From Natrinema versiforme (GTDB lineage Archaea > Halobacteriota > Halobacteria > Halobacteriales > Natrialbaceae), in the NCBI RefSeq assembly GCF_005576615.1, contig NZ_CP040332.1:186001-250000 (forward strand): a DNA stretch of 64,000 nt, written 5' to 3'. The position numbers and the translations under genes are program-made. Under the pieces are notes generated by a model, which saw only the letters and a list, made by a program, of their open reading frames with translations, searched no databases and had not been told where the DNA came from. This document shows positions 5,358 through 37,548 of the stretch, one piece after another. Each line of letters begins with the position of its first letter. Within the stretch, counting starts at the first letter, position 1.

Positions 5358-6662
5358 TCAGGTGCCTAGCAGCTCGGTCGCCGGATACGTGACGATCTCC
5401 GGGACGAGGATAGTGAGAAGCAATACCAGGAGAATCGGTATGTAGTAGGGTAACACGCCCTTCATCGCCTCCTCCAGGCTCGCGTCGGTTACCTTCTCCA
5501 ACACGAAGAGGATGACGCCGAACGGCGGGGTCAGCAGGCCCAGCATCAGCGTCAGGATCATCACGATGCCGAAGTGGAGCGGGTCAATCCCCGCGACGTC
5601 GAGGATCGGCATGAAGATCGGCACGAGGATTGTGATCGCGGCGATCGTCTCCATGAACGTCCCAACTACCAGCAGGAGCGCGACCAGCAGGAAGATCACG
5701 ACTGACGGGTCGTTCGAGAAGTTCGTGATCGACTCCGCCATCAGGATCGGCAGCTGAAGCTGGAGCGCGACCAGCCCGTACAGCGACGCGATGCCGACGA
5801 TGAATGTCAGCGAGAACGTCTCGACCATTCCGTATTGGAGTTCCTCGAACAGCCCCCGCAGTGAGAGCTCGTTGTAGACGAACATCCCAAGGAGGACGGT
5901 GTAGACGACGGCGATTGCGCCCGCCTCGGTGGCAGTGAACGTCCCGGTGAGGATCCCCCCGATGATGAGGACCGGGGCGAACAGCGGGAACACTGCTTCC
6001 TTCAAGCACTGCCACGCCTCAGAGAGATCGAAGGTGTCCTCCGTCTCGTAACCCCGTAGATAGACGAACAGGAAGACGAGCAACATCAGGAACACGCCGA
6101 TGAGGATCCCCGGGAGGATCCCGCCGAGGAACAGCTGGCCAATCGACTCCTCGGCCAGCACGGCGTAGATGATGATCGGGACGCTCGGGGGAATGATTGG
6201 CCCGATGATTGCCGAGGAGCCGGTAACGCCCAGCGAGATGTCCTTTTCGTACCCCTGGTCGCGCATCGCGGTGTACTCGACGCGACCGAGTCCCGCGGCG
6301 TCCGCGACGGCGAGGCCGGACATCCCCGAGAAGATCATGCTGGCGACGATGTTGACGTGTGCGATGCCGCCCCGGAACTGACCGACGAAGGCGTTCGCCA
6401 GGGCGAAGATCCGCTGTGTCATCCCGATGCGGTTCATCAGCCGCCCTAACAGGAGATAAAACGGGATAGCGAGCAGCGTGAAGCTGTTGAGCCCGTACAG
6501 CAACTGCTGGGCTATCAGCCCGTAGTTGAGGCCGCGCCCGTACGGCGAAACCATTATCACGACGCACGTCGCTCCCATGGCGATCCCGACCGGGACGCCG
6601 AGCGCGTACAGCACCAGCAGCAACCCGAGGAACAGGGCGCCGATAATAAGCAGTTCACTCAT
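5358..6662 (-). CDS. dctM: TRAP transporter large permease DctM (system 1)
   Basis: A 434-residue, very hydrophobic protein with about a dozen membrane segments. It has family motifs for the TRAP-T large subunit: GIPFYLLLGRLMN-type loop, the GMSGLAVADAAGLG segment and GSSAIIGPIIPPSVPIIIYAV. It forms the sodium-coupled channel part of a tripartite transporter with the DctQ and DctP genes upstream. Its start lies inside the end of dctQ (overlap 6655-6662), showing translational coupling. Context points to uptake of a sugar acid or hydroxyacid, not C4-dicarboxylates specifically; the gene name is used at family level. Confidence 0.92.
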   Translation of the reverse strand: MSELLIIGALFLGLLLVLYALGVPVGIAMGATCVVIMVSPYGRGLNYGLIAQQLLYGLNSFTLLAIPFYLLLGRLMNRIGMTQRIFALANAFVGQFRGGIAHVNIVASMIFSGMSGLAVADAAGLGRVEYTAMRDQGYEKDISLGVTGSSAIIGPIIPPSVPIIIYAVLAEESIGQLFLGGILPGILIGVFLMLLVFLFVYLRGYETEDTFDLSEAWQCLKEAVFPLFAPVLIIGGILTGTFTATEAGAIAVVYTVLLGMFVYNELSLRGLFEELQYGMVETFSLTFIVGIASLYGLVALQLQLPILMAESITNFSNDPSVVIFLLVALLLVVGTFMETIAAITILVPIFMPILDVAGIDPLHFGIVMILTLMLGLLTPPFGVILFVLEKVTDASLEEAMKGVLPYYIPILLVLLLTILVPEIVTYPATELLGT

Positions 6663-9184: not shown

Positions 9185-9302
9185 TCGTGGTCTGTCAAAG
9201 ACTCGCACGGCATGGTATTTCTATCTTCCCCTGTCCGCGCCGTTCCACGTGGTTGCCGACCCGAGCCATCAGCTGTCCGGCAGCAATCTACCCAAAAGAA
9301 AG

Positions 9303-9311
9303 CTATTTATT
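9303..9311 (+). promoter_or_regulatory. TATA box of the uxuA-like gene
   Basis: CTATTTATT is centred 27 bp before the ATG at 9334, so the transcript is probably leaderless. This supports that start over the in-frame upstream start at 9187, which lies before the box and overlaps the divergent SDR. Confidence 0.6.
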
Positions 9312-9333
9312 TGTGGTTCCAGTTCGTGGTCCT

Positions 9334-10293
9334 ATGGTCGACCTAGCGGTAGTCCTACCGCCGCAACCTGACGATAGATGGAAGCTTGCCAAGCAGATGG
9401 GCGTGGACAACGCCGTGGTACACACCCTGGAGATCGGCGACGACAAAACCGACTGGAGCTACCACGAACTCCAGCATCTGAAAAACTGGTACGAGGACGC
9501 CGGGCTGGAGGTCGGCGTCATCGAGGGCAGCGTCCCCCTGACCGACCGCATCAGGCTCGGACTGGAGGGCCGCAACGAGGACATCGCCGAGTTCAAGAAG
9601 TTCATCCGGAACTGCGGGCGCCTTGACATCCCCGTGGTCTGCTACGACTGGATGGTCGGAATCCGGTGGGCGCGGACGGAGGCCCACGTCGAGGCCCGCG
9701 GCGGCTCGCTCGTGACCGCCTACTCCGATGACAGGATGCACCGGAACGGGGCGGAGCAAGCAGTCGACGCCACGCGCGAGCAGATCTGGGAGGCGCTGGA
9801 GTACTTCCTGCGGGAGGTGACCCCCGTCGCGGAGGAAGCCGGGGTGAAACTCGGCCTCCATCCCGATGATCCGCCACGTGCGTCGCTCGGCGGCGTCCCG
9901 CGGATTGTCAACAGCCCCAAGGCGTACCAGCGCGTCCTTGACGCCTACGACAGCGAATACAATGGTATCACGTTCTGCCAGGGGAACTTCGCGGCGATGG
10001 GCGTCGACATCCCCGCAACGATCCGCCGGTTCGGCGACCGAATCAATTTTGTCCACTTCAGGGACGTGGACGGAGACGCCGACGACTTCGTCGAGACGTG
10101 GCACGACGACGGACCGACGGACATGCTCGCGGCGATGGAGGCCTACCAGGACGCCGTCGACGATGACGTGGTGATGCGGCCCGACCACGTCCCGACGATG
10201 GTCGGCGAGGACAACTCGAACCCCGGCTACCACACCAAGGGCCGCCTCTTCGCGGTCGGATACATGCGCGGCCTTCTCGAACGAACCGCATAG
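9334..10293 (+). CDS. Mannonate dehydratase-like protein (UxuA family)
   Basis: A 319-residue TIM-barrel protein of the UxuA family. The four expected metal ligands are visible: His in LGLHPDDPP, Cys in TFCQGNF, His in NFVHFRDV and Asp in MRPDHVPTM. The family dehydrates D-mannonate to 2-keto-3-deoxygluconate using Mn2+ or Fe2+. The frame is open upstream, but the ATG at 9334 sits 27 bp after a TATA box and gives a natural N-terminus (MVDLAVVLPPQ). It is divergent from the SDR and TRAP cluster and followed by an IclR regulator on the same strand. A second family member is at 32392. Confidence 0.88.
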   Translation: MVDLAVVLPPQPDDRWKLAKQMGVDNAVVHTLEIGDDKTDWSYHELQHLKNWYEDAGLEVGVIEGSVPLTDRIRLGLEGRNEDIAEFKKFIRNCGRLDIPVVCYDWMVGIRWARTEAHVEARGGSLVTAYSDDRMHRNGAEQAVDATREQIWEALEYFLREVTPVAEEAGVKLGLHPDDPPRASLGGVPRIVNSPKAYQRVLDAYDSEYNGITFCQGNFAAMGVDIPATIRRFGDRINFVHFRDVDGDADDFVETWHDDGPTDMLAAMEAYQDAVDDDVVMRPDHVPTMVGEDNSNPGYHTKGRLFAVGYMRGLLERTA

Positions 10294-22308: not shown

Positions 22309-23622
22309 ATGATTACGATTCCGCTCCTCGACCCGGTGGTACTCGCAGTGTTGTTCCTCGGCATTCTGTTAGTACTGTACGGGATTGGGACGCCGATCGC
22401 GATTGCGATGCTCGCGACCAGTATCATTATGATGGCGCTCCCAACGGGGATCAATTTCAACTCGGTCATCATCAATAGCCGGCTGTTTAACGGAATCAAC
22501 AGCTTCGGTATGCTCGCGTTCCCATTCTACGTGTTACTTGGTCGGTTGATGAACACGAGCGGAATGACTGAGCGGTTGTTCGACTTCGCGTCCGCACTTG
22601 TCAGTCAGTTCCGAGGCGGGATCGTCTACGTTAACATCCTGGCCAGTATCATCTTCGCGGGAATGTCCGGCCTAGCTCTCGCCGACGCGGCAGGTCTCGG
22701 TCGCATTGAGTACGCGGTGATGCGCGATCACGGGTACGACAAAGATATCGCGATCGGGGTCACGGGATCCTCGTCGATGATTGGACCGATTATCCCACCT
22801 AGCGTTCCGATCATCCTCTATGCGATTCTGGCGGAACAATCGATTGGACAGTTGTTCCTCGGCGGAATCTTACCCGGACTCCTTCTGGGACTGCTGTTGA
22901 TGGTATTCGTGACCGTCATCATCTTCAAGCGGGGATACGAACGCGGCGATCCGTTCTCGCTGACACAAGTGATGTCGACGTTTAAAGAGGCGATACTGGC
23001 GATTTTCATTCCGGTACTCATAATCGGTGGTATCCTCGGCGGCTACTTCACGGCGACAGAGGCCGGTGCGATAGCGGTGGTATACGTCACGGTTCTGGCC
23101 TGCGTATTCGGCGAACTGAACCTGGGTGACTTTCTGGACGAGGCCCGAGACAGCATGGTCGAGACGTTCTCGCTCACCTTCATTATCGCATCGGCAACGG
23201 TCTACGGGTTGGTCGCCCTGCAACTTCGATTGCCGATGCTGCTCACGGACTGGGTGACATCCGTCTCGACCGACCCGACGACGGTCCTGTTTCTCATCTG
23301 CGCCCTGCTCCTCGTGATCGGGACCTTCATGAGCGTCACCGCTTCGATCACGATTCTCACGCCGTTGTTGATCCCAGTGATCGAGACCGTCGGAATCGAT
23401 CCGATTCACTTCGGGATCGTGATGGTGTTCACGCTGATGATCGGCGTCGTCACCCCGCCGTTCGGAGCGATCCTCTTCGTCCTCGAGAAAGTGACTGACG
23501 CGTCCCTTGAAGAGGTCATCCGCTCGATCATCCCCTACTACATTCCAATGGTCCTCGCAGTAATCATTCTCATCCTATTCCCTGAACTGGTCACGTATAT
23601 CCCGAACAACATCATGGGATAG
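22309..23622 (+). CDS. dctM: TRAP transporter large permease DctM (system 2)
   Basis: A 437-residue TRAP-T large subunit with about twelve helices. It has FPFYVLLGRLMN, GMSGLALADAAGLG, GSSSMIGPIIPPSVPIILYAI and the C-terminal GIVMVFTLMIGVVTPPFGAILF. It is closely related to DctM1 at 5358. It is the transport channel of the second tripartite system; 208 bp follow before the convergent Ldh2-type gene. Confidence 0.92.
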   Translation: MITIPLLDPVVLAVLFLGILLVLYGIGTPIAIAMLATSIIMMALPTGINFNSVIINSRLFNGINSFGMLAFPFYVLLGRLMNTSGMTERLFDFASALVSQFRGGIVYVNILASIIFAGMSGLALADAAGLGRIEYAVMRDHGYDKDIAIGVTGSSSMIGPIIPPSVPIILYAILAEQSIGQLFLGGILPGLLLGLLLMVFVTVIIFKRGYERGDPFSLTQVMSTFKEAILAIFIPVLIIGGILGGYFTATEAGAIAVVYVTVLACVFGELNLGDFLDEARDSMVETFSLTFIIASATVYGLVALQLRLPMLLTDWVTSVSTDPTTVLFLICALLLVIGTFMSVTASITILTPLLIPVIETVGIDPIHFGIVMVFTLMIGVVTPPFGAILFVLEKVTDASLEEVIRSIIPYYIPMVLAVIILILFPELVTYIPNNIMG

Positions 23623-25112: not shown

Positions 25113-26054
25113 GTGCCGTATCAACAGCTTAAGTCCGACCTCCGAGGTGTCGCCTTTACAAATCCGACACCGTTCGACGAGGATGGAGACGAAATTCGAC
25201 ACGACGAACTGGCCGAAAACATTGATCACATCGTAGACGCCGGCGGATCGCTGGTGATTCCGTGTGGCAATACGGGCGAGTACTACTCGTTGACGAACGA
25301 CGAACGAGTGGCAGTCGTCGAGACCACAGTCGATGCAGTCGATGATCAGGGGTCCGTCGTCGGTGGCGTCGGCGGCAGTACGAAAACGGCGATCGAACTG
25401 ACGAACGCCTACGAAGCCGTCGGCGCCGATGCGGTGATGATCATGCATCCGGTACACACGTATCAGCACCAGCGCGGGCTCATCGACTACTATCGCGAGA
25501 TCATCGAATCGACCGACCTCGGCGTGGTGATCTACAAGCGAGGGCCGGAGGTCACGCTCGATCTGATTCGGGAACTCGCGACCTACGAGAACGTAGTCGG
25601 CGTTAAATACGCCGTCAACGACATCAACGGGTTCTCGAAGGCCGTCTCGACAACGGACGCAGACATCGTCTGGTCAAACGGGATCGCGGAACGGTTCGCA
25701 CCGTCATTTGCAATCGAAGGGGCGGAAGGGCTCACGACCGGGATCGGGAACTTCCTCCCCGAGGAAGTACTCGCGGTGATGGACGCGATCAGGGACGAAG
25801 ACTGGGAGCGAGTTCGTTCGCTGCGAGACTGTTTGCGCCCGTACGAGGACCTGCGAGAAGAGACCGGGAAGGACAACGACCTCGATGCGGCCAATAACGT
25901 GCCCGTCGTCAAATACGGAATGGAACTGGCCGGTCTCTACGGCGGCCCGATCCGCGAACCGATCGTGGAGCTAACCGAAGACGACAAACAGCGTGCCGAG
26001 CGCTACTACAGGAGCGTAAAAGACGAAATCGACAGCGGAATCGTCGCCCGCTGA
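25113..26054 (+). CDS. Dihydrodipicolinate synthase/KDG aldolase-family protein 1 (possible 5-dehydro-4-deoxyglucarate dehydratase)
   Basis: A 313-residue class I aldolase/dehydratase. The pyruvate-carboxylate motif GNTGEYYSLT (about 50-59), the Tyr of VVIYKRGP and the Schiff-base Lys of VVGVKYAVND are present, so it is catalytically complete. Related enzymes include KDG aldolase and 5-keto-4-deoxyglucarate dehydratase (decarboxylating to 2,5-dioxopentanoate). The latter fits neighbouring enolase dehydratases and the aldehyde dehydrogenase at 37588. The start codon is GTG, supported by the TATA box. Its paralogue lies 334 bp downstream. Confidence 0.85.
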   Translation: MPYQQLKSDLRGVAFTNPTPFDEDGDEIRHDELAENIDHIVDAGGSLVIPCGNTGEYYSLTNDERVAVVETTVDAVDDQGSVVGGVGGSTKTAIELTNAYEAVGADAVMIMHPVHTYQHQRGLIDYYREIIESTDLGVVIYKRGPEVTLDLIRELATYENVVGVKYAVNDINGFSKAVSTTDADIVWSNGIAERFAPSFAIEGAEGLTTGIGNFLPEEVLAVMDAIRDEDWERVRSLRDCLRPYEDLREETGKDNDLDAANNVPVVKYGMELAGLYGGPIREPIVELTEDDKQRAERYYRSVKDEIDSGIVAR

Positions 26055-29706: not shown

Positions 29707-30939
29707 ATGTACTCCGACTTCGCCGATCGGTTGGCGACGACCATGTGGCAGGACTTCGATCGCACGCCGTCACGAGAAGACAATCCCGCCGAAATTACTG
29801 ATGTTTCCACCGTCGTTGTCGACGGCAATTTCCCGTGGACGATCGTAACGGTCGAAACTGATACCGGTGTGACCGGGGTCGGCGAAGCGTATCCGTCACC
29901 GGGAGTCCACGAGGTGATCACGGACTATTTCGAGCCCGTCCTGCGGGGAGAGAACCCGCTGGACGTCGAACGACTGTACAACCTCATGCGGGCCAGTCTC
30001 TCCGGTCGAGGGTCCCAGCAGGGGATCGGGACCATTGCGATCAGCGGTATTGAACTCGCGCTCTGGGATACCGCCGGAAAGCTCCTCGATCAGCCGGTCT
30101 ATCAACTCCTGGGCGGGAAGATGCGGGACGAGGTTCGGATGTACGCCGACTGCCACGGCGGAGAGGGAATGGTCGCGGCCGCCCGCAACGACCAACGAAC
30201 CGAGACCTACGAAGCGGAGGCGTATGCGCGTTCGGCGCGCGACGCGGTCGACGACGGCTACGAAATCGTGAAGTTCGATCTCGACGTGCCGTCCGGCCGA
30301 GACATCGACACCCTCTCTCGTCACCTCGACAAACCGGAACTGGAACACAAGCGGCGCCTCGTCGAGGCCGTCACCGACGAAGTCGGCGACGAGGCCGAAG
30401 TCACGGTCGACCTCCACTGGAACCTCAGCGTCGAGGCGGCCGAACGGCTCTGTGCGATCCTCGAACCGTACGACCTCGCGTGGATCGAAGACCCGATCCC
30501 GCCGGAGAACGAGTCGGCGATGACGAGGTTGAACCGGAGCGTCGATCAACAACTGCTCACCGGCGAGAATCGCTACGGCCGACACGGGTTCCGCGACCTC
30601 GTCGAACGGCAATCGGTCGCCTTCGTCGCACCCGATATCCCGAAGACGGGCGGTATCGCCGAGACGAAGAAAATCGCCGAACTCGCGGAAACGTCCTACA
30701 TGACGCTCGCTCCGCACAACATCGGGAGCCCCGTCGCAACGATGGCGGGCGTCCACGTCGGCGCGTCGGTCCCGAACTTCCTCGGGCTGGAGTTTCACGC
30801 CCGCGACGTTCCGTGGTGGGACGACCTGGTCGACACCGATGAACCGCTCATTCGGAACGGATATATCGACGTTCCGGACGATCCCGGGCTCGGCATCGAA
30901 CTCGACTGGGATGTCGTCGAGACCCACCGCAAGCGATAG
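29707..30939 (+). CDS. Enolase-superfamily dehydratase 1 (mandelate racemase/galactonate dehydratase type)
   Basis: A 410-residue MR/MLE-type protein. An N-terminal capping domain (to about 130) with GVGEAYPSPG precedes the barrel. The barrel has an acid-base Lys in IVKFDLDVP, metal ligands in VDLHWN (Asp), WIEDPIPP (Glu) and TGENRYG (Glu), and a His in LAPHNIGSP. This is the pattern of D-galactonate- and aldonate-type dehydratases, which convert the acid to a 2-keto-3-deoxy acid with Mg2+. It is first in a run of sugar-acid genes to 35 kb and has four operator-like palindromes upstream. Exact substrate unknown. Confidence 0.88.
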   Translation: MYSDFADRLATTMWQDFDRTPSREDNPAEITDVSTVVVDGNFPWTIVTVETDTGVTGVGEAYPSPGVHEVITDYFEPVLRGENPLDVERLYNLMRASLSGRGSQQGIGTIAISGIELALWDTAGKLLDQPVYQLLGGKMRDEVRMYADCHGGEGMVAAARNDQRTETYEAEAYARSARDAVDDGYEIVKFDLDVPSGRDIDTLSRHLDKPELEHKRRLVEAVTDEVGDEAEVTVDLHWNLSVEAAERLCAILEPYDLAWIEDPIPPENESAMTRLNRSVDQQLLTGENRYGRHGFRDLVERQSVAFVAPDIPKTGGIAETKKIAELAETSYMTLAPHNIGSPVATMAGVHVGASVPNFLGLEFHARDVPWWDDLVDTDEPLIRNGYIDVPDDPGLGIELDWDVVETHRKR

Positions 30940-31017
30940 TCACACGCCGAGAGATGCCGGACGAGGTCGAGCAAACGACAGAAGATATATGTCACCACAT
31001 ATCACATCGGAGAACGA

Positions 31018-32184
31018 ATGCCACCGACTATTACGCGCATCGAATCGATAGAGTTCGCGTACGAACTGACCGACGTCGGATACAGTCCGAACGGCTTTAG
31101 CGTCGTCTACGAACCGGGGTCCTCGACCGAGCGACGGTTGTTCGCACTCCGCATTCACACGGACGAGGGGATCACCGGCGAGTACGTCGGTGGGAACTCG
31201 CCCGCGGCCGCACAGATAAACATGGTCGCCGACTACCTGATCGGCGAAAATCCGCTCGAGCGTGAGCGCCACTGGAGCGCGATGAAACGCGCCCTGCGAA
31301 AGTACGACTGGATGGGACTGGGGCCGCTGGATATCGCGCTCTGGGATTTCGCCGGAAAGTACCGAAACGCTCCGATCCACGAGCTACTCGGAACGTACCG
31401 CGAATCGTTTCCCGGCTACGCCTCGACGTATCAGGGAGACAAGAACGGTGGCCTGGATTCTCCGGCGGCGTTCGCCGATTTCGCCGAGGAGTGTCTCGAG
31501 ATGGGGTATCCGGCGTTCAAGATACACGATTGGGGCGGCAACTGGACCGACCCAGCGGAGACGGCCGAGGCGGTCAGGGCGGTCGGGGACAGGGTCGGCG
31601 ACCGGATGGACCTGATGCTCGACCCCGCCTGCGAGCCGTCGACTTTCGCCGACGCGCTGAAGATGGGGAAGGCCTGCGACGACGCGAACTTCCTCTGGTA
31701 CGAGGATCCGTACCGCGACGGCGGCGTTTCGCAGCACGCTCATCGGAAACTCAGACAGAAACTCGAGACACCGCTGCTACAGACGGAACACGTCCGAGGC
31801 GTGGAACCGCACGCGGACTTCGTCGCTGCCGAGGCGACCGATTTCGTCCGCGCCGACCCCGAATACGATGGGGGAATTACCGGTGCGATGAAGATCGCTC
31901 GCATCGCCGAGGGGTTTGGCCTGGACGTGGAATACCACGCGCCCGGCCCCGCCCACCGGCAGTGCCTCGCGGCGACGCGAAACAGCAACTACTACGAGGT
32001 CGCGTTGGTTCATCCGGACTGTCAGAATACCCAGCCGCCGGTGTACGCGAACGGTTACTCCGACTCGATCGATACGATCGACGGCGACGGCTTCGTTACC
32101 GTTCCGGACGGACCGGGGCTCGGAGTCGAATACGATTGGGACGAGATCCTCTCGCGCGAAACCGGACGACGAGTGTACGAATAG
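31018..32184 (+). CDS. Enolase-superfamily dehydratase 2
   Basis: A 388-residue enolase-superfamily protein, distinct from its neighbours. Barrel motifs are FKIHDWG (Lys-x-His), LMLDPACEP (Asp ligand), LWYEDPY (Glu ligand), LQTEHVRG (Glu ligand) and DVEYHAPGPAHRQ (His). The Lys-x-His pair and the second His suggest a different stereochemistry from enzyme 1. A TATA-like GATATATG lies at 30983-30990, about 30 bp before the ATG. It follows enzyme 1 by 78 bp on the same strand. Likely a sugar-acid dehydratase or epimerase of unknown substrate. Confidence 0.85.
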   Translation: MPPTITRIESIEFAYELTDVGYSPNGFSVVYEPGSSTERRLFALRIHTDEGITGEYVGGNSPAAAQINMVADYLIGENPLERERHWSAMKRALRKYDWMGLGPLDIALWDFAGKYRNAPIHELLGTYRESFPGYASTYQGDKNGGLDSPAAFADFAEECLEMGYPAFKIHDWGGNWTDPAETAEAVRAVGDRVGDRMDLMLDPACEPSTFADALKMGKACDDANFLWYEDPYRDGGVSQHAHRKLRQKLETPLLQTEHVRGVEPHADFVAAEATDFVRADPEYDGGITGAMKIARIAEGFGLDVEYHAPGPAHRQCLAATRNSNYYEVALVHPDCQNTQPPVYANGYSDSIDTIDGDGFVTVPDGPGLGVEYDWDEILSRETGRRVYE

Positions 32185-32391
32185 GTTCCTATCGGGACGG
32201 ACCGGTAATTCGGGGACAACCGTCGTGTAGACGCCCGGAAGGACACTGGATTCGAGACCCGGGACCGGTCAGTGGGGCTCGTCCCTGAATTACCGGACCG
32301 GCGCGAATTGCACGGTCACGACGGCAATCTCCCCGTCGTGGGATGAGTATGCTCCCGAAAAGCTTTAGGTCGCCTGTGAGTGGTACGACGT

Positions 32392-33465
32392 ATGAGCACT
32401 GAAGAGCGTCTGGGAGACGTTCGAGTCGGTGTCCGAACACGATCCCTTTCGGAGTCGCGGTTACAGTACGTCCGTCAGCTCGGTGCGACGGACATCTTCG
32501 TCGACCACGCCGATACGGAAGAAGAGCCCGACGCGTTCAACGATCGCGACGGATCCGATACCATCGCGGTCGGCCCGGATCAGATCCCGTCAGTCAGCGA
32601 ACTGACTGCCGCCCGCGAACGGGTGGAAGACGCCGGACTCTCGTTGACCGGCGTTCACTCGCTCCCGTACTCGATGTACGGCGATATCATGTTCGACCGA
32701 GACGGGGCGGACGAAGCGATCGACCAGATCTCGACGCTCATCCGGAACCTCGGGGAAGCGGACATTCCGATACTGGGGTATCAGTGGAACCCCCGGAGCG
32801 TCGTTCCCATGCGGACATCCCCGGTCGAAATCCGCGGCGAGGCCGAGGGAACCGCGTTCGACCTGGACGAACTCGACGACCCGCACGAGCTCGCACCGGG
32901 CCTCGACCGAGAGTACACCGAAGAGGAGTTCTGGGACAATTACCGGTACTTCCTTGAGTCGGTGCTCCCGGTCGCGGAGGAGGCCGGGGTCGACCTCGCC
33001 CTCCATCCGGTAGACCCGCCGGTTCTCGAATCCCTCGCTGGCATTCCGCGGTTGTTCCGCAGCGTCGAGAACTTCGAACGGGGAATGGAACTCGTCCCGA
33101 GCGATAACCACGGGTTGAAGCTCTGTCTCGGATGCTTCTCTCAGATGGGAGAAGACATCACTGACGTAATCCAGCGGTTCGGTAAGCGGGATCAGATCGT
33201 CTTCGTCCACTTCCGCGACGTCGTCGGAACGGTACCGGAGTTCCACGAAACGTTCGTCGATAGCGGGAACTTCGATCCAGCCGAAGCCGTTCGAGCGCTC
33301 AACGACATCGGCTTCGAGGGAGCAGTCCTTCCGGATCACGTTCCGGAGATGGTCGGCGACGATGACTGGCGACACCGCGCTCGCGGGTTCACCGTCGGAT
33401 ATCTCCGCGGCGTCATCGATACGGTTCGATCCGAACGGATTGGGCAGAGAGCCGAGACGGAGTAA
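32392..33465 (+). CDS. Mannonate dehydratase-like protein 2 (UxuA family)
   Basis: A 357-residue UxuA-family TIM barrel. Expected metal ligands are kept: His in ALHPVDPP, Cys in KLCLGCFSQ, His in FVHFRDV and Asp in VLPDHVPEM. The usual HPDDP reads HPVDP, whereas the paralogue at 9334 keeps HPDDP. It has an N-terminal extension and an extra acidic loop (about 165-185). A TATA-like AGCTTTAGG lies about 30 bp before the ATG at 32392. It sits between two enolase-type dehydratases, so it may act on another epimer of the same sugar acids, or as an epimerase. Confidence 0.83.
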   Translation: MSTEERLGDVRVGVRTRSLSESRLQYVRQLGATDIFVDHADTEEEPDAFNDRDGSDTIAVGPDQIPSVSELTAARERVEDAGLSLTGVHSLPYSMYGDIMFDRDGADEAIDQISTLIRNLGEADIPILGYQWNPRSVVPMRTSPVEIRGEAEGTAFDLDELDDPHELAPGLDREYTEEEFWDNYRYFLESVLPVAEEAGVDLALHPVDPPVLESLAGIPRLFRSVENFERGMELVPSDNHGLKLCLGCFSQMGEDITDVIQRFGKRDQIVFVHFRDVVGTVPEFHETFVDSGNFDPAEAVRALNDIGFEGAVLPDHVPEMVGDDDWRHRARGFTVGYLRGVIDTVRSERIGQRAETE

Positions 33466-33648
33466 TACCAAGCACATCTGGACGGTCCGGTCGACCAGCA
33501 CGGCTCGCGGCAGCGTCCGGAAGCGAAACCGTCAAAGAACTCGAGATGTGGCGACTTACGTCCCATCGGTCGAATACGCGTACGGCGCAGGTGCGACAAT
33601 TGCCGTACCAAACTTTATTAGATATCGTGCAGTGTATTGACACTACCC

Positions 33649-33750
33649 ATGGCATGCCCTCGATGTGACGTGAGTCAGAATAGGCCGTACGAACACCCCC
33701 AGTACCAGTGTGACGAGTGCGGTTACGTCCCGGTGCAGGGTGCAGATTAA
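33649..33750 (+). CDS. 33-residue zinc-ribbon microprotein
   Basis: A tiny acidic protein that opens MACPRCDVSQ and has two CxxC pairs, CPRC at residues 3-6 and CDEC at residues 21-24. They would bind one zinc as a rubredoxin-like knuckle pair. A TATA-like ACTTTATTAGA is centred about 33 bp before the ATG, so the gene has its own promoter. It lies between the UxuA-like and third enolase-family genes on the same strand. Small zinc-finger proteins of this kind are common in haloarchaea and several affect regulation or metabolism; this one's role is unknown. Confidence 0.7.
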   Translation: MACPRCDVSQNRPYEHPQYQCDECGYVPVQGAD

Positions 33751-33823: not shown

Positions 33824-33835
33824 AACTATTTAATA
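33824..33835 (+). promoter_or_regulatory. TATA box that decides the start of enolase-family gene 3
   Basis: AACTATTTAATA ends directly before an in-frame ATG at 33837. Transcription should start near 33857, so the second ATG at 33858 is the leaderless start. Confidence 0.6.
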
Positions 33836-33857
33836 GATGTCCGAAGGTGTGTCACGT

Positions 33858-35102
33858 ATGGACATCGCCCATGTAGATAGCTATGCATTATCATCGCCGA
33901 TCGATCCACCGCAAGACCGCTCGTTCCACGGCGGCACCCGACGGTTGAACAAGCGAGACGTCGTTCTCGTCGTTCTGGAAACGCGTGACGGGGAACAGGG
34001 ATTCGCTACCGCTGGTGCGAGTAGCTCCGCGATGCGCGAGTACTTCGAAGGCGACTCACAGGGAACGTTCGCCGACGTTCTCGGTGGTACCGTCGCCGAC
34101 GCGCTCGAGGGAGAGACGATCACCGAGGTGACCGACGCCCACGATCTGATCTCCGATACGAACCTTCCGGCACACCTCCAGACGGAGGCGATCTCGGCGG
34201 TCGACGTCGCATTGTGGGACCTCCGAGGAAAGGAACTTGGCACGCCCGTTTACGACCTGCTCACCGACGAATACGAGACGGAGCCGGCTGAGGAAATGCC
34301 GCTCTACGCCAGCGGCGGGATGTACATGGAGCCCGAAGGCTACGTCGAGCAAGCCGAGGTCCTCGAGGAGGAGGGGTTCTTCGGCTACAAGTATCGTCCC
34401 GGGATCGGACCGGACGGGGATCGGCGGACGGTCGAGCAGCTCGCCGCGGCGACCGACGAGATGGCGTTCATGCTCGACGTCCACACGTGGTGGAAGCTCC
34501 GGAGCTCGTACGGGGACGATACCGTTCAGAATCTCGTCGAACACGCTGCACGTGAAGGTGCGTTCTGGATCGAAGAACCGGTGGAGCCGGACGATCACGA
34601 GGGGTATACCTCATTAGCGGAGCACGGTGCACCGCTCGCGGGCGGCGAAAGCAAAGAGTCCCCGTCCGGGCTCGTCGAACTGGGAGAGACCGGTGCCGTC
34701 GACTTCCTTCAGGGCGACGTGCGGCATCACGAGGGGTTCTCGGGTTGTCGTCCTGCGATCGAGTTCTGTCGCGGTCGTGACGTCGAGTTCGTTCCCCATA
34801 ACTTCGGCACGTGGCTCGGACTGATCGCCAACGCCCATCTCGTCGCCGCAGCCCCGGAAGTGCGGCTGCTGGAGTATCCGGTCTTCGAAAACGATCCGAC
34901 GATTGACGGTCGACCCGATCCCGGCATGTATCCGTTCGAGCTCGCGTTCGATATTATCGACGGCGAACCGGACATCGATAACGGGATGCTGACCGTACCG
35001 GACGGACCCGGCCTCGGAGTCGATGTGAACCTCGACGTGATCCGGGACTACCCGTTCGCCGACGGACCGTGGACGGAGTTCCACTACGACGAGGACGAGT
35101 AA
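33858..35102 (+). CDS. Enolase-superfamily dehydratase 3 (glucarate/fuconate-like)
   Basis: A 414-residue enolase-superfamily protein. Motifs are YKYRPGIGPDG (Lys in the KxR position), MLDVHTWW (Asp ligand), WIEEPVEPDD (Glu ligand), AGGESKESP (Glu ligand) and VPHNFGTWLG (His). The KYRPG and HNFG pattern resembles MR-group sugar-acid dehydratases. The start is placed at 33858, where MDIAHVDSYALSSPI matches the family's first strand and the promoter requires it; 33837 is an alternative in frame. It is the third dehydratase of this class within 5.4 kb. Confidence 0.85.
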   Translation: MDIAHVDSYALSSPIDPPQDRSFHGGTRRLNKRDVVLVVLETRDGEQGFATAGASSSAMREYFEGDSQGTFADVLGGTVADALEGETITEVTDAHDLISDTNLPAHLQTEAISAVDVALWDLRGKELGTPVYDLLTDEYETEPAEEMPLYASGGMYMEPEGYVEQAEVLEEEGFFGYKYRPGIGPDGDRRTVEQLAAATDEMAFMLDVHTWWKLRSSYGDDTVQNLVEHAAREGAFWIEEPVEPDDHEGYTSLAEHGAPLAGGESKESPSGLVELGETGAVDFLQGDVRHHEGFSGCRPAIEFCRGRDVEFVPHNFGTWLGLIANAHLVAAAPEVRLLEYPVFENDPTIDGRPDPGMYPFELAFDIIDGEPDIDNGMLTVPDGPGLGVDVNLDVIRDYPFADGPWTEFHYDEDE

Positions 35103-35149: not shown

Positions 35150-36349
35150 CTACAGTTCTTCGCGGACCTGCTCGGCAACGTGCTCACCGAACGGAAGGGA
35201 ACACGTCAGCCCAGGTGAGACGGCGTTGAGCACGTGGAGGGAGCGTGGTCCGTCTTGGACCATCGGATCCTTCACCAGTTCGCCGTTTCCGTCGACGAGC
35301 TGAGCGCGTACACCGGCGTAACTGCGGACGAAATCCTGAGCGCGCGCCTCGGGGACGAGGTTCCGGGAGGCCTCGACGAACGCCTTCTTTTTGTATGATT
35401 TGTTCAACTCCTCCCACGCGACCTTCATCATTTTCGGCTCCATCATCAGCTTCCAAAACCCGCCGTAGCTGAGCACGTCGCGAAGTTCGCCGAGATCGAA
35501 CTCCGTATTCCGGTACGCCTCACGAGCGAACGCGAGCACTGCATTGGGACCGACGATGACCTTTCCGTCGGTTCGGCGCGTATAGTGGACGCCGAGAAAC
35601 GGCAATTCGGGGTCCGGCGTCGGATATATCATCGTGTTACAGAGGTGCCGGCGTTCGGGAACGAGTTCGTAGTAGTCGCCTCGGAAGGGGATAATCTGGT
35701 ACCCCGTTCCCACTCCGACTTCCGCGGCGAGCTTGTCGGCATAGAGACCGGCCGCGTTAACGAAGTAGTCGCCGTTGATCGCTCCCTTATCGGTCCGGAC
35801 CCGGACGTCGGAGGACGAGGCGGACACCGATTCCACGGTATGCCCCATGTAGAAGTCGACACCGGCGTTCTTGGCCTCTTTGGCGAGTTCATAGACGTAC
35901 TGCTGGGAATCGACGGACGCGGCCTCCGGACAGTACAATGCGGCGCGACCCTGCGCGTGAGGCTCGCGCTCCTCAAGCTCTTCCGAGCCGATGATTTCGG
36001 TCTCGACTCCATTGGCGTCGGCCTGTTGCTGAATCGACGATAGCCGGCGCTCTTCGGCGGCGGTAGTAGCGACGACGACGACGCCGAACTCCCGAAGGGG
36101 GATATCTCGTTCGTTCGCGTACGCTTTCATCCGAGTCGTCCCTTCGGTAGCGAACCGCGCCTTCGTGGACCCCGGTTCATAGTTGAAACCGGGGTGAAGA
36201 ACACCGGAGTTCCGCCCGCTTTGATGTGCGGCGAGCCGGTGTTCCTTTTCGACCAGAGCGATGTCCAGTTCGCGGTCTTCCGCGAGATGTTTCGCGGTCG
36301 AACAGCCGACACAGCCGCCGCCGACGATAACGATATCGTACTTGGGCAT
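35150..36349 (-). CDS. lhgO: L-2-hydroxyglutarate oxidase-like FAD protein (LhgO)
   Basis: A 399-residue FAD oxidoreductase of the DAO/LhgO group. The N-terminal dinucleotide motif is VIVGGGCVGCSTAKHL, followed by the LhgO-type SGRNSGVLHPGFNYEPGS and, near the C-terminus, SYAGVRAQLVD and NAVSPGLTCSLPFGE. LhgO oxidises L-2-hydroxyglutarate to 2-oxoglutarate and feeds electrons to the membrane quinone pool. 2-Oxoglutarate is also the proposed end product of the oxidative uronate route here. The gene is divergent from IclR 2; a motif 1 site at 36534 and a motif 2 site at 36724 lie between them. Confidence 0.87.
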   Translation of the reverse strand: MPKYDIVIVGGGCVGCSTAKHLAEDRELDIALVEKEHRLAAHQSGRNSGVLHPGFNYEPGSTKARFATEGTTRMKAYANERDIPLREFGVVVVATTAAEERRLSSIQQQADANGVETEIIGSEELEEREPHAQGRAALYCPEAASVDSQQYVYELAKEAKNAGVDFYMGHTVESVSASSSDVRVRTDKGAINGDYFVNAAGLYADKLAAEVGVGTGYQIIPFRGDYYELVPERRHLCNTMIYPTPDPELPFLGVHYTRRTDGKVIVGPNAVLAFAREAYRNTEFDLGELRDVLSYGGFWKLMMEPKMMKVAWEELNKSYKKKAFVEASRNLVPEARAQDFVRSYAGVRAQLVDGNGELVKDPMVQDGPRSLHVLNAVSPGLTCSLPFGEHVAEQVREEL

Positions 36350-36774: not shown

Positions 36775-37548
36775 ATGGCAAACGTTCCCAACGAACGCCC
36801 CGGACGCAGGATACGGTCGGTGGAAATAGCGTTCACCATCCTCAAAACGATCCGAAAGCGGGATCGGATCACCGTCACGGAACTGGCGAACGAGCTCGGC
36901 CATTCGAAAAGCACCGTTCACAGCCACCTCCGAACGCTCGAGGATCAGGAGATCATCGTCCGTGAGGGGAACGGATACCGGTTGGGACTGCAGATCCTCG
37001 ATATGGCCAACGACGTCCGAGAGCAGGCGTGTAACTACAACGTCATCGTCGAGAAGGTCGACGAACTGGCGAACGAAACGGGAGAGATTGCTCAGTTCGG
37101 GCTCGAAGAGCACGGTCAGTTAGCGTATCTGTACAAAGCGAGGGGGGAGCACGCAGTCGAGACGGCGTCGCGTATCGGTCAGAAACAACCGATCTACTCG
37201 ACATCGCTTGGAAAGGCCATCCTCGCACACCTGCCGTCCGACCGGACCGAAGAAATCGTCTCCACTGCCGAATTCACGCCGCGCGGTCCGAACACGATTA
37301 CGAACGAACGGGAACTCTACGAGAATCTCGAGACGATCGCCGAGCGGGGCTATGCGATCGATGACGAAGAGAACATCGAGGGGCTCCGATGCGTCGCCGC
37401 TCCGATCAAAAACGACGAGATAATACACGGGGCCATCAGCGTCACTGGACCGGCCAGTCGAATCACCGACGAGCGCCTGCACGGCGAAATCGCCGAAAGT
37501 GTTCAACGGGCCGCGAACGTGATCGAACTCAACACGAAATTTTCCTAG
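36775..37548 (+). CDS. IclR-family transcriptional regulator 2 (candidate reader of motif 2)
   Basis: A 257-residue IclR protein. The winged helix-turn-helix is at about 15-75 (ITVTELANELGHSKSTVHSHLRTLEDQEIIV). The effector domain has TSLGKAILAHLPSD and DDEENIEGLRCVAAPI. It is leaderless, with its TATA box touching the palindrome at 36724. That palindrome recurs before the MFS carrier and three times before the enolase-family operon, so this regulator is the best candidate to bind it and to control the 17-39 kb regulon. This is inference. It is convergent with the aldehyde dehydrogenase gene. Confidence 0.9.
   Translation: MANVPNERPGRRIRSVEIAFTILKTIRKRDRITVTELANELGHSKSTVHSHLRTLEDQEIIVREGNGYRLGLQILDMANDVREQACNYNVIVEKVDELANETGEIAQFGLEEHGQLAYLYKARGEHAVETASRIGQKQPIYSTSLGKAILAHLPSDRTEEIVSTAEFTPRGPNTITNERELYENLETIAERGYAIDDEENIEGLRCVAAPIKNDEIIHGAISVTGPASRITDERLHGEIAESVQRAANVIELNTKFS

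What the first reader, a model, noticed from the sequence alone, without database searches (positions are those of the whole stretch)
33649..33750. 33-residue zinc microprotein with its own promoter inside the sugar-acid operon
Two CxxC pairs, a TATA box at the right distance and position between a UxuA-like and an enolase-like gene. Very small zinc proteins in haloarchaea are often missed and can regulate metabolism.
Basis: partly seen in the sequence, partly recalled or inferred. Interest (0 to 1): 0.5.

Follow-up and report, generated by a model that had tools for sequence, protein, structure and literature searches.

The report
Hidden 33-residue zinc microprotein gene
A tiny, apparently unannotated zinc-finger-type protein gene in a salt-loving archaeon is real, conserved and carries its own conserved control switch, which makes the unknown job of such microproteins easier to test.

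Summary
The ORF at 33649-33750 (MACPRCDVSQNRPYEHPQYQCDECGYVPVQGAD) is a real gene. Relatives with the same start, four cysteines and (nearly always) a G-A/S-D end occur in other haloarchaea. In one close pair dN is 0.03 and dS 1.35. Synteny holds: a genome of another family has UxuA-like - microprotein - MR_MLE, and two genomes of the same genus have it beside the orthologue of one of these genes.

New feature: a conserved operator, TTCGACNNTTGTCGTA, just upstream of the TATA box (window 33592-33607). It is at -57..-52 in 13 of 21 non-redundant loci against 0.3-0.6 in shuffles, and in 2 of 2 named loci found later. Similar operators precede 12 of 22 small TrmB/IclR-like winged-helix genes examined.

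It is a gene cluster, not an operon, and the microprotein is optional: it lies beside 2 of 30 UxuA and 2 of 20 MR_MLE loci, the window included in both. By motif it is a CPxCG zinc-finger microprotein like Brz; no Pfam or NCBIfam model reaches its cut-off. Relatives carry no listed gene in nine plasmid records. Best reading: a small Brz-like regulator of adjacent catabolic genes; zinc binding and regulation are untested.

The parts
33649..33750 (+). 33-aa microprotein gene, C4 zinc-finger type (CxxC-N14-CxxC), C-terminal G-A-D
   Evidence: conserved start, four Cys, G31-A/S32-D33; synonymous excess
33614..33620 (+). TATA-like element TTTATTA of the microprotein gene
   Evidence: sequence; similar element at the same place in the closest homologues
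33592..33607 (+). conserved palindromic operator (TGCGACAATTGCCGTA; consensus TTCGACNNTTGTCGTA), 12 of 14 defined positions
   Evidence: positional conservation in 13 of 21 non-redundant upstream regions and in 2 of 2 later ones
33624..33629 (+). possible third half-site (ATCGTG) downstream of the TATA element, 22 nt after the upstream half-site
   Evidence: by eye on the upstream regions; not tested statistically
32392..33465 (+). UxuA-like (mannonate dehydratase family) neighbour upstream
   Evidence: PF03786 159.6 bits; below the NCBIfam cut-offs; orthologues
33858..35102 (+). MR_MLE/enolase-superfamily sugar-acid dehydratase-like neighbour downstream, own TATA-like TATTTAATAG at 33827-33836
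   Evidence: PF13378/PF02746; no NCBIfam cut-off reached
36775..37548 (+). IclR-family regulator of the same cluster
   Evidence: PF01614 130.2 bits
37588..39039 (-). aldehyde dehydrogenase-type gene; its 83% identical orthologue lies in the microprotein locus L034 and a homologue in L080

Best explanation
The ORF is a genuine, separately transcribed gene for a single-domain C4 zinc-finger microprotein. It belongs to a haloarchaeal family of 31-35-residue proteins that nearly always end in G-A/S-D. Its promoter is switched by a transcription factor that binds the palindrome TTCGACNNTTGTCGTA directly upstream of the TATA box. The factor is most likely a winged-helix protein of the small TrmB/IclR-like family, whose own genes often carry a similar operator. 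Once made, the microprotein most likely acts as a Brz-like local regulator that tunes transcription of adjacent catabolic genes, here the UxuA/MR_MLE sugar-acid cluster. Shown: gene reality, conservation, operator, synteny. Inferred: zinc binding, identity of the operator-binding factor, and action on neighbouring genes.
For: Homologues with the same start and stop. Synonymous excess: G023:C1 versus G002 dN 0.03, dS 1.35; window versus the four other subgroup A copies pN 0.26-0.34 while pS is 0.74-0.92. Operator at a fixed distance in 13 of 21 loci, against 0.33 in 2000 letter shuffles and 0.55 in 1000 first-order Markov shuffles, maximum 4 in both; and in 2 of 2 further named loci found later by protein search. 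Of 40 exact operator matches in 391 genomes, 10 (three of them near-identical) lie about 50 nt upstream of a two-CxxC small ORF. Similar operator (at least 11 of 14) upstream of 12 of 22 winged-helix relatives examined, four of them near-identical, against 0.4 (maximum 3) in 100 Markov shuffles; one is in the window's own genome. Synteny UxuA - microprotein - MR_MLE in G363 of another family, UxuA neighbour in G023, MR_MLE neighbour in G002. Many relatives sit in sugar, sugar-acid or betaine-type catabolic clusters. Precedent: Brz, a small zinc-finger protein beside bop needed for high bop and crtB1 transcripts (PMC2253796: abstract, Results section on the family, and Discussion read).
Against: The microprotein is not beside most UxuA (28 of 30) and MR_MLE (18 of 20) loci held, so the pathway can do without it. 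IclR proximity (11 of 31 loci with near-duplicates) is not specific: on the window's replicon a random point already has about a 23% chance of an IclR gene within 5 kb. 8 of 21 loci, all three of subgroup B among them, lack the canonical operator. CGAC/GTCG-rich words are common in these genomes: with one mismatch the palindrome core is no more frequent than chance in the window (16 against 13.5 expected) or than its reversed control in the genome (26 against 29); 30 of the 40 exact matches are not before such a small ORF. Recent Haloterrigena copies show no synonymous excess (dN 0.08, dS 0.05) and one copy (G054) is broken. AlphaFold gave only a low-confidence model (mean pLDDT 64.4). No expression, binding or phenotype data exist here. 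In H. volcanii 5 of 14 tested C(P)XCG microproteins held no zinc (PMC11241148 abstract).
Confidence: 0.5

Rival explanations
1. A real zinc microprotein that is a response gene rather than a regulator: it buffers or delivers zinc, or assists a metalloenzyme, and is switched on by the operator-binding factor together with other genes.
For: Enzymes of metal-dependent families (MR_MLE, UxuA, Rieske oxygenase, Zn- and Fe-dehydrogenases) and a CobW-type GTPase are among the neighbours. The operator also precedes genes that look, by eye from their sequences, like HMG-CoA synthase, malate dehydrogenase and malic enzyme.
Against: Neighbouring enzymes differ from locus to locus and several are not metal-dependent by family (ALDH, IclR clusters); no metallochaperone family reached its cut-off for the microproteins scanned.
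Confidence: 0.25
2. A free-standing TFIIB-zinc-ribbon-like adaptor that binds RNA polymerase or TFB and acts generally, not on the neighbouring genes in particular.
For: PF08271 (TFIIB zinc-binding): 30.1 bits against a cut-off of 29 for the G098 relative, 27.9 and 24.3 for two 35-aa relatives, 18.0 for the window protein. The profile search in solved structures lists a TFIIB ribbon, 1pft, but at E 0.18.
Against: The window protein is below the cut-off and its closest type of relative (MRCNSC...) has no Pfam match at E 0.01. Zinc ribbons of unrelated function give similar scores: ribosomal eL43 scores higher than TFIIB.
Confidence: 0.12
3. The ORF is a by-product: the conserved element is the operator/promoter for a regulatory RNA, or the ORF is the debris of a transposase zinc ribbon.
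For: Zn_ribbon_IS1595 is the top Pfam name by E-value (1.3e-4, 22.3 bits, cut-off 25.4). Untranslated small RNAs are reported in H. volcanii (title of PMC12482152, search listing only).
Against: Strong synonymous excess and conserved start, cysteines and stop; the adjacent genes of the window locus are not transposases.
Confidence: 0.04

Closest known systems
Brz (OE3104F) of Halobacterium salinarum, bacteriorhodopsin-regulating zinc finger protein (PMC2253796)
   Same: Small CPxCG-related zinc-finger protein encoded directly upstream of, and in the same orientation as, a target gene; an imperfect inverted repeat overlaps its promoter region (Discussion read).
   Different: No sequence comparison was made; Brz has at least 52 residues (mutants C11S, H52F) with His in its second pattern; here 33 residues, four Cys, and a different gene cluster.
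C(P)XCG zinc-finger microproteins of Haloferax volcanii, such as HVO_0649, HVO_2753, HVO_0758 (PMC6562870 passages; PMC11241148 abstract, section 2.1, figures and tables)
   Same: Under 70 aa, two CxxC(G) motifs. H. volcanii has 5 annotated C(P)XCG proteins of 30-40 aa and 94 in all (Table 1).
   Different: No NCBIfam HVO_ model reaches its cut-off (HVO_0649 14.3 bits against 70 for the window protein; HVO_A0556 13.8 against 65 for a 35-aa relative). The 33-residue family, its operator and its cluster association are not in the passages read. Whether one of the five 30-40-aa H. volcanii proteins is a relative was not tested.
TFIIB/TFB N-terminal zinc ribbon (PF08271)
   Same: Similar CxxC...CxxCG spacing; one relative (G098/L044) exceeds the Pfam cut-off.
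   Different: The window protein does not (18.0 against 29); only the ribbon is present, no core domain.
IclR-regulated catabolic clusters of haloarchaea (XacR, GacR, RhcR, MscR; PMC11519228 passages)
   Same: IclR genes lie in several of the clusters that carry the microprotein.
   Different: Whether an IclR protein binds this palindrome is unknown; no binding motif was given in the passages read.

Membership tests
CPxCG-related small zinc-finger proteins (definition of PMC2253796, section read) | Two Cys/His patterns 7-40 residues apart, at least one CPxCG-like (CPxCG, CPxCx or CxxCG) | tested here: met
   CPRC-D (CPxCx) and CDEC-G (CxxCG), 14 residues between them
CPxCG-related small zinc-finger proteins | Very small protein (under 70 or 100 aa), single domain | tested here: met
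   33 aa with conserved start and stop
CPxCG-related small zinc-finger proteins | Binds one zinc ion | not testable with these tools
   Needs purified peptide; 5 of 14 tested H. volcanii members were zinc-free (PMC11241148 abstract)
Brz-like regulators of adjacent genes | Encoded directly beside the target gene, in the same orientation | tested here: inconclusive
   True in the window (UxuA and MR_MLE on the same strand), but in G363 MR_MLE is convergent and in L042-L044 of subgroup B the nearest large gene is divergent; the target is unknown
Brz-like regulators of adjacent genes | Deletion changes transcription of neighbours | not testable with these tools
   needs a wet experiment
Brz (orthology) | Sequence relationship to Brz | not tested
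   Brz sequence was not retrieved
HVO_0649 family (NF041911) | Score at least 70 bits | tested here: not met
   14.3 bits
Zn_Ribbon_TF, TFIIB (PF08271) | Score at least 29 bits | tested here: not met
   Window 18.0 bits; relative G098 30.1 bits
Zn_ribbon_IS1595 (PF12760) | Score at least 25.4 bits | tested here: not met
   22.3 bits

The most novel reading that the evidence does not exclude
Operator plus 31-35-residue TFIIB-ribbon-like microprotein is a portable regulatory cassette of haloarchaea: a winged-helix sensor controls the cassette, and the free zinc ribbon competes with or recruits TFB/RNA polymerase at neighbouring catabolic promoters, so that one class of sensor drives many unrelated pathways through local microproteins.
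Probability: 0.1. Interest if true: 0.8.

Novelty: new member of a known kind. Interest (0 to 1): 0.5.

Why it matters
What archaeal zinc microproteins do is largely unknown beyond Brz and some deletion phenotypes in H. volcanii. Here an apparently unannotated family comes with a conserved operator, a candidate class of upstream regulators and repeated placement in catabolic clusters, including named organisms on sequenced plasmids (Haloferax mediterranei, Haloterrigena turkmenica, Natrinema sp. SYSU A 869, Haloarcula pelagica, Halocatena marina). This turns the general question into a two-gene, one-promoter experiment. It also suggests that annotation misses conserved genes of 31-35 codons.

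Tried and rejected
Longer TTG start at 33637: rejected, not conserved. Operator as a genome-wide regulon of the window's organism: only two exact CGACNNTTGYCGTA sites in the genome, and by eye no TATA-like element follows the second; with up to one mismatch 26 sites against 29 for the reversed control, and in the window the core with one mismatch is at chance (16 against 13.5). In one search the exact pattern had 40 matches against 5 for the reversed control, but that control contains GC where the pattern contains CG, so in CpG-rich genomes it understates chance. Operator shared by the UxuA, MR_MLE, ALDH or IclR promoters of the cluster: not evident by eye in window, L033, L034 and L080, apart from a wider-spaced inverted repeat before UxuA (see Noticed in passing). 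IclR proximity as proof of control: rejected as non-specific because IclR genes are dense on the window's replicon. Relatives in viral contigs: 92 pattern matches, none confirmed. The scan of genome contigs confirmed 3 loci. CsmR and OxsR motifs do not match this palindrome (PMC13286277, PMC9426492 passages); no XacR or GfcR binding motif was found in the passages and listings seen. AlphaFold model too uncertain to search with, so no fold search was run.

Rows dropped and slips: 9 of 30 upstream regions (L043, L076, L081, L087, L089, L090, L091, L095, L099) were dropped as near-duplicates before the 13-of-21 count. Of the 30 loci printed only 4 (L002, L003, L004, L031) belong to the 33-residue family; that call read minus-strand loci in the wrong orientation, mended. 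Of the 30 winged-helix loci held after, 22 were examined; L229, L232 and L240-L245 were left out. The consensus used was read from the same sequences it scores; the position scan in that call, the Markov control and the two later loci are the controls; a third locus, L248, is the same place as L098 and is not counted. My notebook says 11 of 40 and about 6 for the control; recounting gives 10 and 5, used here.

Full report
What is there. The window lies on a 414-kb contig of a haloarchaeal genome (G000:C4:186001-250000). At 33649-33750 lies a 33-codon ORF with CPRC and CDEC pairs 14 residues apart. The window holds one ORF of 25-60 aa with two CxxC pairs; 60 Markov shuffles gave a mean of 0.1, and none with the CPxC/CxxCG flavour.

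It is a gene. In the 125 genomes of the family, 8 had a match at E 0.001 or better. Six of them carry true 33-residue relatives: the window's own, G002, G023 (three copies), G053, G056 and G098; the other two are a TFB-like protein (G027) and a longer paralogue (G018). A profile of eight members (invariant M1, C3, C6, P13, C21, C24, G25, G31, A32, D33) found a further intact 33-mer in G363, of another family, a broken one in G054, and 31- and 35-residue variants in several families. The C-terminal G-A/S-D has exceptions: G201 lacks it and Halocatena marina has G-V-D. At weaker scores the profile reaches many other zinc ribbons, so the tally of 243 of 391 genomes at E 0.01 must not be read as family members. 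Between G023:C1 and G002 there are 12 synonymous and 2 non-synonymous differences (dN 0.03, dS 1.35); window against the other four subgroup A copies pN is 0.26-0.34 with pS 0.74-0.92. Against this, the very young Haloterrigena copies show dN about equal to dS on very few changes, and one copy is broken, so some copies may be decaying.

Public records. At the places of the relatives no gene is listed in nine plasmid records: NZ_CP082247, NZ_CP082248, NZ_CP069192, NC_013745, NZ_CP039140, NZ_CP110252, NZ_CP109982, NZ_CP083667 and NZ_CP126162. The gene table of that collection is incomplete by its own description, so this is suggestive, not proof, of missing annotation.

Promoter. The microprotein has its own TATA-like element at 33614-33620. 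Directly upstream lies a palindrome, TGCGACAATTGCCGTA at 33592-33607. Among 21 non-redundant upstream regions (9 near-duplicates of 30 removed) 13 score at least 9 of 14 against TTCGACNNTTGTCGTA at -57..-52. Letter shuffles gave a mean of 0.33 (2000 trials), first-order Markov shuffles 0.55 (1000 trials), maximum 4 in both; other offsets gave at most 2 except the two bins that contain the peak. The eight without it include all three of subgroup B, which share a different conserved stretch (TCATTTA[GT]CAC) there. Two loci found later by protein similarity (Halocatena marina, Haloarcula pelagica) both have it, 13 of 14, at -54 and -53. A third half-site seems to follow the TATA element; I did not test it. 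Conversely, the exact pattern TCGACNNTTGTCGTA occurs 40 times in 391 genomes against 5 for its reversed control, a control that understates chance in CpG-rich genomes. Ten of these 40 lie about 50 nt upstream of a small two-CxxC ORF (L131, L132, L139, L140, L141, L144, L145, L158, L160, L161; L139-L141 near-identical). Others lie upstream of small winged-helix genes (for the L136 protein TrmB 25.1 bits against a cut-off of 25.6, HTH_IclR 22.6 against 22) or of what look by eye like enzymes of central metabolism. Of 22 winged-helix relatives examined, 12 have an operator of at least 11 of 14 within the 260 nt upstream, four of them near-identical, against 0.4 (maximum 3) in 100 Markov shuffles; one is in the window's own genome (G000:C2:2472359). 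These proteins are therefore the first candidates for the operator-binding factor; this is inference.

Surroundings. The window copy lies between a UxuA-like and an MR_MLE gene. G363 has the same UxuA-like - microprotein - MR_MLE order (MR_MLE convergent) with ALDH and IclR next to it; G023 has it downstream of the UxuA orthologue (82% identical); G002 has it downstream of the MR_MLE orthologue (83%), both about 0.67 kb away. The fifth subgroup A copy (G023:C1) lies between replication and SMC genes. Subgroup B copies lie next to Rieske-type oxygenases (PF00848 over its cut-off; best NCBIfam name glycine betaine monooxygenase, 77.7 bits against a cut-off of 670), the Haloterrigena ones also with IclR, ADH and ALDH genes. 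The 31-35-residue variants lie near L-rhamnonate genes (Haloarcula pelagica, Halocatena marina), gdhB/kdgK/eda/MR_MLE (Haloferax mediterranei), GH43/GH3/arabinofuranosidase, FAA-hydrolase, HpcH aldolase or acetamidase genes, while a few lie near genes that look unrelated or of DNA metabolism (L086, L097, L099, by eye). In 31 loci, near-duplicates included, there was an IclR gene in 11 and an ALDH gene in 8. IclR proximity is weak evidence: the chance for a random point is about 4% genome-wide but about 23% on the window's replicon.

Not an obligatory part of the pathway. UxuA-like homologues at E 1e-60 or better occur in 81 of 391 genomes; among the 30 best loci held, 2 have the microprotein within about 1.5 kb (window, G363). 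Of the 20 best MR_MLE loci held from the 125 genomes of the family, 2 have it (window, G002). So it is an add-on, consistent with a regulator that is gained and lost.

What it works like, and what it is. By the published definition (PMC2253796) it is a CPxCG-related small zinc-finger protein. In what I read, the member with a shown role in transcription is Brz, which lies directly upstream of bop and whose loss lowers bop and crtB1 transcripts; its authors also note an imperfect inverted repeat at the brz promoter. That is the model I adopt. No Pfam or NCBIfam model reaches its cut-off for the window protein; the nearest informative resemblance is the TFIIB zinc ribbon, where one relative passes the cut-off. 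Zinc is unproven: in H. volcanii 5 of 14 tested C(P)XCG proteins were zinc-free (PMC11241148 abstract). The structure model was poor.

Literature. Eight searches of the held library did not list a paper that I could recognise, from titles, abstract starts and the passages opened, as being on this family or this palindrome; most subscription papers are not in it, and I did not read supplements.

Noticed in passing
L136, L126, L134, L138, L159, L217-L222, L224, L230, L231, L234, L238: Small (about 75-95 aa) TrmB/IclR-like winged-helix genes often carry the palindrome or a close variant (such as TTCGACGATTGTTGTA), in several followed by TTTTATTATCGTCGA, suggesting an autoregulated haloarchaeal regulator family; no NCBIfam cut-off reached for the two scanned.
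   Followed up: partly
L127, L146, L164, L110: The same palindrome or a one-mismatch form lies upstream of genes that look by eye like HMG-CoA synthase, malate dehydrogenase and malic enzyme, hinting at a wider metabolic regulon.
   Followed up: no
window 32317-32340: A wider-spaced inverted repeat of the same half-sites, CACGAC-N12-GTCGTG, lies upstream of the TATA-like element of the UxuA-like gene; not seen by eye before its orthologues.
   Followed up: no
G000:C2:1878623-1878712 and L006-L014, L017, L018, L021, L022, L025, L026, L028, L069, L070: A related, longer (about 41-46 aa) zinc microprotein mostly ending in G-A-D is present in many genomes of the genus; no Pfam or NCBIfam cut-off reached for the two scanned.
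   Followed up: partly
window 35150-36349 (-): FAD oxidoreductase that exceeds the NCBIfam cut-off for L-2-hydroxyglutarate oxidase (421.7 against 299 bits) within a sugar-acid cluster.
   Followed up: no
window 5358-6662, 9187-10293, 22309-23622, 25113-26054, 29707-32184: Further sugar-acid type genes around the finding: a distant homologue (36%) of the UxuA-like protein, two homologues of a TRAP large permease, a dihydrodipicolinate synthase-family homologue and two more MR_MLE-type genes.
   Followed up: no
L081 (G054:C57, about 235003): A broken copy of the microprotein gene beside a betaine-type cluster (Rieske, IclR, ADH, CobW-type genes open), suggesting that the gene can be lost without losing the cluster.
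   Followed up: no
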